Shown in pieces: positions 46,575 to 48,342 of a DNA stretch of 64,000 nt. The stretch's first letter is position 1; each line of letters starts with the position of its first letter. Below the pieces are notes generated by a model. The model saw nothing but the letters and a program-made list of their open reading frames with translations, did not search any database and had not been told where the DNA came from. The DNA is from Olleya aquimaris. Lineage in GTDB: Bacteria; Bacteroidota; Bacteroidia; Flavobacteriales; Flavobacteriaceae. Location of the stretch: contig NZ_QLLO01000002.1 in NCBI RefSeq assembly GCF_003259525.1, positions 418,012 through 482,011 on the forward strand. Reading direction: 5' to 3'. The position numbers and the translations under genes are program-made.

Positions 46575-46608
46575 AAAAAACGCAATCATTATTTTGATTG
46601 CGTTTTTT
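46575..46608. terminator. Bidirectional terminator between dnaK and blh
   Basis: A run plus ACGCAATCA pairs with TGATTGCGT plus T run. The blh stop codon (46589-46591) lies inside the hairpin. Confidence 0.85.
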
Positions 46609-47506
46609 GGTTTTTAAACATCTTGTTAATTACCAAAGCATGTGGGAATGTAATAGCTGCAATAAACGAAAAGAGGATAGCGTAAATCAATTTTTCTTCT
46701 TTAAAAATTGAAATGACTATTACTATACCTATTAAGGAGATTATCCAATAGGGAAATGCTCTTTTAAAATAAGAAATAACAGAAGTTTTATTATAATTCC
46801 CATAAATAAAATTAATTTGTTCGTATAGTGAAGGAATGCTATGCCAAAGAATAAAATAAATAGTAAATCCCCAGATTAATGTAGAAGCTTTAAACACTAT
46901 TGCGAAGACTATTAAATAAAATAATTCTTTAAAAAACACGCTTTTAAAATTAATTATTAAGTTTCTCAATTTTATAGCAAATACTATCAATAATAATGTA
47001 GAAGCAATAAGACCATAGATAATAATTTCTTCTGCGAACGAGTAACTAGTAATTGAATATATAACCTCTATAACTTTTTGAGCATTATAAAAAAATAAAA
47101 GAAACAATATAAACAACCCATAAAACAGATAAAAAAACTTGATAATTAATGAGTTGTTAATTGTTATTTTATGCTCCCAATGTTGTTCTCCAAAATGAAA
47201 TGCACTAAAAACTATAAATAATAAAAAAGCTACTGCAGGTAGATAATAAAATAGTATTACTGCAGAAAGCACAGTAATTAAATACAATGCAAACACTTTA
47301 AAAAAAGGCTGTTTAGTTTTTTTATTAGATAGGTTCTCTATTAACAAAATATCATTAGAACCATGTAATATGCCAAAAGAGAAAATTAAAATAAACCCTA
47401 AAACAATCTCATATTCTTTAGGAACTATAGAGGTAATCCATAACCCTAATAAACTCAACACTATAGAAATATTATAAATTTTATCCATGTTATTTATCAT
47501 ATTCAT
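46589..47506 (-). CDS. blh: Brp/Blh-family beta-carotene 15,15'-dioxygenase
   Basis: 305 residues, an integral membrane protein with about eight helices. The likely iron-binding histidines are present: His48 in GILHGSNDI, His104 and His109 in FHFGEQHW, His222 in ILWHSIPSLYEQ, and His289 in TFPHALV. The family cleaves beta-carotene with oxygen into two molecules of retinal, the chromophore of proteorhodopsin. Its divergent partner, 98 bases away, is a proteorhodopsin gene, so this enzyme supplies retinal locally. No beta-carotene synthesis genes (crt) lie in the window. The gene is more AT-rich than most of its neighbours. Two upstream ATGs are close, and the first is chosen. Confidence 0.92.
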   Translation of the reverse strand: MNMINNMDKIYNISIVLSLLGLWITSIVPKEYEIVLGFILIFSFGILHGSNDILLIENLSNKKTKQPFFKVFALYLITVLSAVILFYYLPAVAFLLFIVFSAFHFGEQHWEHKITINNSLIIKFFYLFYGLFILFLLFFYNAQKVIEVIYSITSYSFAEEIIIYGLIASTLLLIVFAIKLRNLIINFKSVFFKELFYLIVFAIVFKASTLIWGFTIYFILWHSIPSLYEQINFIYGNYNKTSVISYFKRAFPYWIISLIGIVIVISIFKEEKLIYAILFSFIAAITFPHALVINKMFKNQKTQSK

Positions 47507-47559
47507 AAAAATAAACCAAATTTTTTGTTAAATGTAAATTCATATTGTTTAACTATTAG

Positions 47560-47581
47560 TAAATTTGTTTAAACAAAATTA
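47560..47581. promoter_or_regulatory. Face-to-face -7 boxes and palindrome between blh and rhodopsin gene
   Basis: TAAATTTG at 47560-47567 (plus strand, rhodopsin) and TAATTTTG reading minus at 47574-47581 (blh). The two TTTG halves together form the 14-bp perfect palindrome TTTGTTTAAACAAA (47564-47577). Spacing to any upstream TTG is shorter than usual (about 12), so the exact start points are uncertain. Confidence 0.5.
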
Positions 47582-47604
47582 ATAAATACTAAACAAAAAT
47601 TGCT

Positions 47605-48342
47605 ATGAAAACTTTTTTATCTTTAGTAGACGTCACGTCTAAATTAGATCCTACCGATTATGTAGGATTTACATTCTTTGTAGGTTGTATGGCTATGATG
47701 GCTGCTTCAGCCTTTTTCTTTTTATCATTAAACCAGTTTGATAAAAAATGGAGAACATCTGTACTGGTATCTGGCTTAATTACATTTATTGCTGCGGTTC
47801 ACTACTTTTACATGAGAGACTATTGGGCAGTAAATATGGAGTCTCCAACCTTTTTCAGGTATGTTGATTGGGTATTAACTGTGCCATTAATGTGTGTTGA
47901 ATTTTATTTAATACTTAAAGTAGCAGGAGCTAAACCTGCTTTAATGTGGAAGCTAATTGCATTTTCTGTAATTATGTTAGTGACCGGGTACTTTGGTGAA
48001 GCAGTGTACAATACTGGAAGCGGACCTGCTGTTTGGGGAGCAATTTCTGGAGCTGCATACTTCTATATAGTCTATGAAATTTGGTTTGGAAGCGCTAAAA
48101 AGTTAGCGGTAAATGCAGGAGGTGATATTTTAAAAGCACATAAAATACTATGTTGGTTTGTATTGGTAGGTTGGGCAATATACCCATTAGGTTACATGAT
48201 GGGAACAGAAGGATGGTACAACTCTATATTACCACAAGGTGGAATAGATGTTGTTTACAACTTAGCAGATGCTATTAACAAAATTGGATTTGGGCTAGTG
48301 ATATACGCGTTAGCTGTGAAAAAGAATGAAGTTCATAATTAG
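47605..48342 (+). CDS. Proteorhodopsin, light-driven proton pump
   Basis: 245 residues, seven helices. Proton-pump residues are intact: counter-ion Asp88 and its partner His66, Thr92 and proton donor Glu99 (the DTE motif in RYVDWVLTVPLMCVEF), and the retinal Schiff-base Lys226 in INKIGFG. The spectral-tuning position (105 in green proteorhodopsin) is Met96, as in other marine flavobacterial rhodopsins that absorb green light. There is no NDQ motif of sodium pumps, so it exports protons. A short N-terminal stretch precedes helix A with no clear signal peptide. Blh lies divergently upstream, and a strong terminator follows. Confidence 0.97.
   Translation: MKTFLSLVDVTSKLDPTDYVGFTFFVGCMAMMAASAFFFLSLNQFDKKWRTSVLVSGLITFIAAVHYFYMRDYWAVNMESPTFFRYVDWVLTVPLMCVEFYLILKVAGAKPALMWKLIAFSVIMLVTGYFGEAVYNTGSGPAVWGAISGAAYFYIVYEIWFGSAKKLAVNAGGDILKAHKILCWFVLVGWAIYPLGYMMGTEGWYNSILPQGGIDVVYNLADAINKIGFGLVIYALAVKKNEVHN

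What the first reader, a model, noticed from the sequence alone, without database searches (positions are those of the whole stretch)
47507..47604. blh and proteorhodopsin promoters face each other across a 14-bp perfect palindrome
The 98-base gap between the divergent retinal-making enzyme and its opsin has -7 boxes on both strands (47560-47567 and 47574-47581). Their TTTG halves form TTTGTTTAAACAAA (47564-47577), so one protein bound there could control both. Light-dependent expression is known for marine flavobacterial rhodopsins but the regulator is, to my knowledge, undefined. The palindrome may instead simply be the two overlapping -7 boxes.
Basis: partly seen in the sequence, partly recalled or inferred. 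Interest (0 to 1): 0.7.

Follow-up and report, generated by a model that had tools for sequence, protein, structure and literature searches.

The report
B12 light switch for proteorhodopsin genes
The short gap between a flavobacterium's proteorhodopsin gene and its retinal-making gene holds two overlapping copies of a paired DNA motif that recurs at carotenoid and photolyase genes in related bacteria, and it is likely the landing site of a vitamin-B12-based light sensor (CarH) predicted to keep these genes off in the dark.

Summary
The conserved unit is a 30-bp site, TGTTTA-N18-TAAACA. The window has two, shifted by 20 bp (47546-47575 over the opsin promoter, 47566-47595 over the blh promoter); the palindrome is their overlap. 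With one mismatch allowed, 95 of 104 opsin upstreams hold a site, shuffles 1.3. The same site spans the start of carH in 45 of 50 genes. carH encodes a CarH/LitR-like MerR/B12 photoreceptor heading this genome's carotenoid genes. The site also flanks photolyase/cryptochrome, folE and fasciclin genes. It is in 287 of 293 Flavobacteriaceae genomes with a close CarH, 10 of 28 with a distant one, 15 of 76 with none; a TetR rival tracks it less well. Best explanation: dark repression by AdoCbl-CarH at an inverted-repeat operator, released by light, switching opsin and retinal synthesis together with carotenogenesis and photorepair. Binding and light response are inferred, not measured.

The parts
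46589..47506 (-). blh (beta-carotene 15,15'-dioxygenase, makes retinal)
   Evidence: Pfam BCD E 3.3e-39; NCBIfam TIGR03753 over cut-off
47605..48342 (+). proteorhodopsin gene; the RYVDWVLTVPLMCVEF stretch reads as a D/T/E proton-pump motif (rule recalled, not tested)
   Evidence: Pfam Bac_rhodopsin E 1.2e-42; 100 of 397 sampled family genomes hold a homologue at E <= 1e-20
47546..47575 (+). opsin operator TGTTTA-N18-TAAACA (half-sites 47546-47551 and 47570-47575)
   Evidence: exact match; a site with <=1 mismatch within 130 nt upstream in 95 of 104 opsin loci, dinucleotide shuffles mean 1.3, max 5
47566..47595 (-). blh operator TGTTTA-N18-TAAACA (half-sites 47566-47571 and 47590-47595), overlapping the opsin operator by 10 bp (20-bp shift)
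   Evidence: exact match here and in G171 of the same genus (L031, L032)
47564..47577 (.). 14-bp palindrome of the finding: overlap of the two operators
   Evidence: exact in 11 of 110 opsin loci
47560..47567 (+). opsin -7 box TAAATTTG, operator positions 15-22
   Evidence: TAnnTTT[GA] at operator position 15 in 77 of 86 distinct opsin-proximal sites, TAnnTTTG in 42 of 86
47574..47581 (-). blh -7 box TAATTTTG, positions 15-22 of the blh operator read on the minus strand
   Evidence: in other species the blh box is most often at position 19 (25 of 40)
47525..47531 (+). degenerate outer half-site TTGTTAA, 20 bp upstream of the opsin left half-site; similar GTTAAA stretches in several close relatives
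   Evidence: sequence display only, not tested

Best explanation
The gap carries two overlapping TGTTTA-N18-TAAACA sites, one laid over each promoter, and these are likely operators of this genome's CarH-type B12-dependent photoreceptor, which is predicted to repress blh and proteorhodopsin together in the dark and to let go in the light. Shown by sequence: the sites, their fixed 24-bp half-site spacing, their position over the -7 boxes, their conservation, their recurrence at carH and other light genes, and their co-occurrence with carH. Inferred: that AdoCbl-loaded CarH binds there as an oligomer in the dark, blocks RNA polymerase at both promoters at once, and is released when light breaks the Co-C bond, so that opsin and its chromophore enzyme come on together with carotenogenesis and photorepair. 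In this window and in G171 of the same genus the two operators share 10 bp; where relatives have a second site it is most often 43-46 bp away.
For: (1) Unit: of 104 opsin loci with at least 130 nt upstream (97 distinct sequences), 60 have the exact half-sites at a spacing of exactly 24 (next commonest spacing 4, in 14); with <=1 mismatch 95 of 104 (34 with two or more), dinucleotide shuffles mean 1.3, max 5; with <=2 mismatches 97 of 104, shuffles mean 12.6, max 19. (2) It behaves as an operator, not a promoter element: half-site spacing is fixed while the -7 box moves, at operator position 15 in 77 of 86 opsin sites, 19 in 25 of 40 blh sites, -5 in 34 of 45 carH sites. (3) Autoregulation: carH has the site at -23, its second half on ATGAACA, in 45 of 50 carH genes (<=2 mismatches); codon 2 is AAC 46, AAT 1, other 3, while codon 3 is AAC 13, AAT 29, other 8; Fisher on AAC/AAT p 3e-12. 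(4) Co-occurrence: extended site TGTTTAA-N16-TTAAACA in 287 of 293 Flavobacteriaceae genomes with close CarH, 10 of 28 with only a distant one, 15 of 76 with none; mean 3.67, 0.68, 0.39 per genome, reversed control 0.14, 0.14, 0.09; one genome per genus 174 of 177 against 12 of 58 for the other two groups together. Outside the family, 86 of 112 CarH+ against 8 of 80 CarH- genomes of the class sample. (5) Opsin promoters: a site with <=1 mismatch within 80 nt in 27 of 31 CarH+ genomes against 3 of 14 CarH- ones, the three being assemblies 73-91% complete; of the five CarH+ loci with opsins as divergent as the CarH- ones, 4 have it. (6) Regulon: 6 of 7 exact own-genome sites lie at opsin, blh, a photolyase-related/cryptochrome-DASH/folE/DUF2805/TetR-ABC1 cluster and two fasciclin genes; 26 of the 30 operator loci fetched from other genomes have a homologue of these regulon proteins within about 1.5 kb, against 0 of 28 control loci of this genome. 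(7) The protein has MerR and B12-binding_2 domains, Wx9EH, ExHxxG, and matches Thermus CarH (5c8d, E 4e-11) over residues 8-228. (8) TAAACA fits TnnACA, most of the published CarH repeat nAnnTnnACAn (PMC8156234 passages). (9) The genome has a PduO-type cobalamin adenosyltransferase.
Against: No binding, footprint or expression was measured. The protein scores 64.7 bits on NCBI's CarH model against a cut-off of 400. The residue after Trp of Wx9EH (His132 in Thermus) is Gln in 30 of 30 homologues; a passage in PMC11796333 says Thermus H132A cannot monomerise, though it also says another cobalamin photoreceptor (SasPcob) has Gln there, so light release may work differently. The third published B12 element (SxV/T, GG) is only partly present. 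Published Thermus and Bacillus CarH operators are direct 11-bp repeats, not inverted repeats. 6 of 293 close-CarH genomes lack the exact extended site, 15 of 76 CarH-less genomes have one, and 26 of 112 CarH+ genomes outside the family lack it. Among genomes without a close CarH, 13 of 27 with the TetR gene have the site against 12 of 77 without it, so TetR also correlates. 9 of 104 opsin loci have no site with <=1 mismatch. One Dokdonia strain (PRO95) is reported to express its opsin constitutively (passage in PMC3380642). At one mismatch the site is weakly specific in this genome (61 against 44 control). The CarH+ opsin loci are mostly those most like this opsin, so divergence is a partial confounder. 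The close/distant CarH boundary was set after seeing the counts; unsplit, it is 297 of 321 against 15 of 76. A second, 124-aa-frame MerR protein without tested B12 domain (L008) was not tested as binder.
Confidence: 0.82

Rival explanations
1. The TetR-family protein (TetR_C_23) encoded beside the photolyase cluster, whose own start also carries the site, is the true binder and CarH merely belongs to its regulon.
For: The TetR gene has the site directly upstream in this genome and in several others; among genomes without close CarH the site is in 13 of 27 with this TetR and 12 of 77 without; TetR operators are usually inverted repeats (recalled).
Against: 56 of 59 genomes with close CarH but no such TetR match still have the site; of 13 TetR+ genomes with no CarH match, 7 have none, including all 5 that are at least 99% complete (G059, G180, G228, G297, G383), and the 6 that have it are assemblies 73-93% complete (completeness).
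Confidence: 0.07
2. The palindrome is only two back-to-back sigma-A -7 boxes of overlapping divergent promoters, with no dedicated regulator.
For: Both boxes fit TAnnTTTG, and the palindrome's arms contain the TTTG ends of the boxes; palindromes of this size arise by chance.
Against: Does not explain the outer half-sites, the 24-bp spacing in 60 of 104 opsin loci, the same site at carH and photolyase genes, or the co-occurrence with carH.
Confidence: 0.03
3. TTTTGTTTAA is a recognition element of an alternative sigma factor (as recalled for LitS in Streptomyces) rather than a repressor site.
For: The left half-site is preceded by a T-rich stretch and lies upstream of the opsin -7 box.
Against: The distance from half-site to -7 box differs between opsin, blh and carH promoters while the half-site-to-half-site distance is fixed; at carH the left half-site overlaps the -7 box and the right one lies on the start codon.
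Confidence: 0.04
4. CarH binds here but acts mainly as a light-independent B12 sensor, or is an activator, not a dark repressor.
For: Gln replaces His132; MerR proteins are often activators (recalled).
Against: In most sites scored the -7 box lies inside or touches the operator, where bound protein would block polymerase; several targets use light or repair light damage.
Confidence: 0.12

Closest known systems
CarH of Thermus thermophilus, Bacillus megaterium and Myxococcus xanthus (B12-dependent photoreceptor repressor)
   Same: MerR DNA-binding domain plus B12-binding region; Wx9EH and ExHxxG; here the gene is next to crtI and crtB; operator overlapping the core promoter; half-site fits TnnACA of the published repeat (passages of PMC8156234).
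   Different: Operator is an inverted repeat with 24-bp half-site spacing instead of 3-4 direct 11-bp repeats; Gln instead of His132; predicted targets include proteorhodopsin and blh.
LitR/PplR regulon of Pseudomonas (phrB, cryB, ufaM, folE)
   Same: Photolyase, cryptochrome and folE together under a CarH/LitR-family repressor (passages of PMC9758184).
   Different: There the site is TGTACA-N12-TGTACA and the class II protein works with a LOV partner; here TGTTTA-N18-TAAACA and a protein with Wx9EH.
Light-induced carotenoid synthesis in Chryseobacterium lacus
   Same: crt genes induced by light in what its authors place in the Flavobacteriaceae (passages of PMC7064467).
   Different: Its authors report no car or lit operon genes and propose an unknown regulator; that genome was not examined here.

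Membership tests
CarH photoreceptor family (regulator) | N-terminal MerR-type DNA-binding domain | tested here: met
   MerR_1 53.6 bits over the 21.6 cut-off
CarH photoreceptor family (regulator) | Wx9EH cap motif | tested here: met
   30 of 30 homologues scanned; aligns with the Thermus motif
CarH photoreceptor family (regulator) | ExHx2G B12-binding motif | tested here: met
   29 of 30 homologues; EIHELG in this genome
CarH photoreceptor family (regulator) | Remaining B12 motif, SxV/T and GG | tested here: inconclusive
   SxV/T at the published spacing of 41 in 5 of the 29 rows printed (L144, L145, L146, L151, L159), not in this genome's protein, which has SGR near its end rather than GG
CarH photoreceptor family (regulator) | NCBIfam CarH model (NF052513) over cut-off | tested here: not met
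   64.7 bits against 400, though it is the best-scoring NCBIfam model; so filed as CarH-like, not as that equivalog
CarH photoreceptor family (regulator) | AdoCbl binding and light-driven release from DNA | not testable with these tools
   needs protein
Thermus/Bacillus-type CarH operator | 3-4 tandem direct repeats of 11 bp | tested here: not met
   the half-sites form an inverted repeat at 24 bp; positions 17-19, 11 bp before the right ACA, show no ACA in the base counts
Thermus/Bacillus-type CarH operator | nAnnTnnACAn base contacts | tested here: inconclusive
   TnnACA met in both half-sites; the outer A is present in 22-68% depending on half-site and promoter class (base counts; consensus)
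Repressor operator overlapping the promoter | site overlaps the -7 or -35 region or the start | tested here: met
   -7 box inside or touching the operator in 77 of 86 opsin, 25 of 40 blh and 34 of 45 carH sites; transcription starts not mapped

The most novel reading that the evidence does not exclude
An inverted-repeat CarH operator, TGTTTA-N18-TAAACA, is the light switch of the class Bacteroidia. It puts retinal-based phototrophy under vitamin B12 control, so that proteorhodopsin and its retinal enzyme, carotenoids and photorepair form one green-light-induced regulon, and B12-starved cells would make the photosystem even in the dark.
Probability: 0.6. Interest if true: 0.87.

Novelty: new variant of a known kind. 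Interest (0 to 1): 0.76.

Why it matters
Light-dependent opsin expression in marine flavobacteria has been reported (passages of PMC3380642). In the passages and listings I saw, promoter class (RpoD consensus, PMC3587595) and RpoS are discussed, but no light-sensing transcription factor for these opsins is named (searches in the open-licence library; the Dokdonia light transcriptome paper itself is not held). This gives a named candidate, an exact site and a regulon, testable with one deletion and one footprint. It would tie ocean phototrophy to vitamin B12, a micronutrient many of these bacteria are thought to scavenge (recalled), and would add an inverted-repeat operator to a photoreceptor family described as binding direct repeats.

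Tried and rejected
Palindrome as the unit: rejected; rare in relatives and not above chance. Direct repeat TTGTTTA at 20 bp as the unit: searched in the own genome, 15 matches per strand with up to 1 mismatch against 10 and 14 for the control, so not pursued; it is a by-product of the two overlapping operators. TetR as binder: tested and judged unlikely, with the counts that favour it given above. My first reading of the carH promoter, with the -7 box between the half-sites, was wrong; the base counts put it at positions -5 to 2. Structure prediction was not run: the tool's text does not list genome-search loci among allowed sources. The whole-database protein search was not run. The exact site at G000:C1:322597 (L171) has no clear light-related neighbour and was left unexplained, as were 4 of 30 operator loci elsewhere (L188, L197, L204, L205). 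No light-induction data could be matched to sites: the Dokdonia transcriptome paper is not held, and the one scan of named genome contigs was used.

Caveats on counts: the 110 opsin loci join two collections (30 + 80) and may share species; 97 of the 104 upstream sequences used are distinct, and 93 opsin-proximal sites gave 80 distinct sequences. 6 of 110 loci were dropped for short upstream sequence. In one search, 2 of 16 CarH- and 3 of 34 CarH+ loci were dropped for lack of usable upstream sequence (one of the former, G272, had 5 mismatches), and 2 further CarH- opsin genomes (G292, G391) were not fetched because their opsin match was partial. The carH sample is the 30 best plus 20 picked from the lower part of those listed, not all 321. 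The shuffles keep base composition only; those keep dinucleotides. Searches used 21 of the 30 operator loci (17 with a regulon homologue); the remaining 9 were added (26 of 30). The 28 control loci come from this genome only. The 20 genomes's coordinate list were picked because a site lay near carH, so they show where it lies, not how often.

Full report
What is there. The 98-base gap 47507-47604 separates blh (-) from a proteorhodopsin gene (+). As a palindrome it is unremarkable.

The real unit. Comparing 110 opsin loci, 30 from sampled Flavobacteriaceae genomes and 80 from named records, showed that TGTTTA and TAAACA recur upstream of the opsin at exactly 24 bp, start to start: 60 of 104 usable loci with exact half-sites, 95 of 104 with <=1 mismatch (dinucleotide shuffles mean 1.3, max 5), 97 of 104 with <=2 (shuffles mean 12.6, max 19); 34 of 104 have two or more sites at <=1 mismatch. 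Where a second site occurs (<=2 mismatches) it is most often 43-46 bp from the opsin-proximal one, on the blh side (31 of 50 site pairs). In this window and in G171 of the same genus (a third sampled member, G346, has no opsin match) the two exact sites are only 20 bp apart and share 10 bp; that overlap makes the palindrome. The blh operator here, read on its own strand, has the layout of the opsin operator: TGTTTA, 8 bases, TAnnTTTG, 2 bases, TAAACA. If the -7 boxes work as drawn, the two transcription starts would lie within a few bases of each other (inference).

It behaves like an operator. The half-site distance is constant, while the -7 box sits at operator position 15 (opsin, 77 of 86), 19 (blh, 25 of 40) or -5 (carH, 34 of 45). 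A promoter element would keep its distance to the -7 box.

Which protein. The genome encodes a 300-aa MerR protein with a B12-binding region, the first gene of a run read here as carH-crtI-crtB-crtZ-crtY. Of these names crtB rests on Pfam SQS_PSY; crtI on Amino_oxidase plus recall; crtY on a lycopene cyclase model below cut-off; crtZ on order and recall (no NCBIfam match). The regulator aligns with Thermus CarH over residues 8-228 and keeps Wx9EH and ExHxxG, the kind of motifs said to define CarH (passages of PMC8156234). It falls below NCBI's CarH cut-off. The genome also has a PduO-type cobalamin adenosyltransferase, so AdoCbl could be made from scavenged B12 (inference).

Link between site and protein. 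In 45 of 50 carH genes the site lies at -23, its second half on ATGAACA; codon 2 is AAC in 46, AAT in 1 and another codon in 3, whereas codon 3 is AAC in 13, AAT in 29 and another codon in 8. The amino acid does not dictate this, so the DNA is under constraint. One further gene (L145) has an exact site displaced to -86, with the full TAAACA half. Across 397 sampled Flavobacteriaceae genomes the extended site is in 287 of 293 with a close CarH, 10 of 28 with only a distant one and 15 of 76 with none; with one genome per genus it is 174 of 177 against 12 of 58. In the rest of the class sample it is 86 of 112 with CarH against 8 of 80 without. In 20 genomes that I picked because a site lies near carH, 17 have one within about 210 bp downstream of the estimated end of carH and 2 (one of them also counted in the 17) have one at its start; G424 and G499 have it 334-468 bp downstream. 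In four family loci (L194, L198, L202, L206) the site lies between carH and crtI. Opsin promoters of genomes without a CarH match have mostly lost the site: <=1 mismatch within 80 nt in 3 of 14, against 27 of 31 with CarH; the three are incomplete assemblies.

Regulon. In this genome 6 of 7 exact sites lie at the opsin, blh, a TetR-ABC1-cryptochrome-DASH-photolyase-related-DUF2805-folE cluster (start and middle) and two fasciclin genes; the seventh is unexplained. Relatives show similar clusters; a GHMP (mevalonate-type) kinase gene and a desaturase have the site in one genome (G034), and genes of a Porph_ging-type family in several (one of the latter was scanned). 26 of 30 operator loci in other genomes, but 0 of 28 control loci of this genome, have a homologue of these proteins next to the site. 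Photolyase, cryptochrome and folE are also LitR targets in Pseudomonas (passages of PMC9758184). A comparative study found photolyase gene clusters enriched in opsin-bearing flavobacteria (abstract and passages of PMC5932025).

Mechanism. By analogy with CarH: in the dark an AdoCbl-CarH oligomer sits on both operators and shuts both promoters; light cleaves the cofactor and frees them. Each of these steps is inferred for this organism. Two features do not fit the Thermus model: inverted rather than direct repeats, and Gln in place of His132, so geometry and release may differ. The TetR rival keeps some support (13 of 27 against 12 of 77 among genomes without close CarH) but fails where it can be separated best: 56 of 59 CarH-close genomes without it keep the site, and the 5 most complete TetR+ genomes without CarH have none.

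Novelty. In the open-licence papers searched I saw no report of a CarH operator in Bacteroidetes or of CarH controlling an opsin; I saw the listings of these searches and passages of nine papers only. A MerR gene at a flavobacterial crt cluster is in print (PMC11855829 passages). I therefore rate this a new variant of a known kind.

Noticed in passing
G000:C2:326263-326292 and 333478-333507 (L236:6264 and 13479): A 9-gene run (TetR, ABC1 kinase, flavin reductase, NmrA/DUF2867, cryptochrome-DASH, photolyase-related, 142-aa protein, DUF2805, folE) carries an exact site at its start and another in its middle; similar layouts recur in G034, G044 and G017.
   Followed up: partly
L176:1501-1530 and L177:1501-1530: Two fasciclin-domain genes each have an exact site upstream, as do fasciclin genes in other genera; why a fasciclin protein should be a light-regulon member is unknown.
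   Followed up: partly
carH homologues, residue after Trp of Wx9EH: Gln in 30 of 30 flavobacterial CarH proteins scanned where Thermus has His132, which hints at a different light-state chemistry.
   Followed up: partly
L171:1501-1530 (G000:C1:322597): An exact site near a small lipoprotein-like gene and a PAS histidine kinase gene; no conservation check was made.
   Followed up: no
window 47525-47531: A degenerate third half-site TTGTTAA 20 bp upstream of the opsin operator; similar stretches are seen at a like place in several close relatives.
   Followed up: no
L242:2040 (G034): A site lies between diphosphomevalonate decarboxylase and a GHMP (mevalonate-type) kinase gene, which suggests that isoprenoid supply can join the regulon.
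   Followed up: no
L008 (G000:C4:285357-285566): A second MerR-type gene in this genome, not examined further and not excluded as a binder.
   Followed up: no
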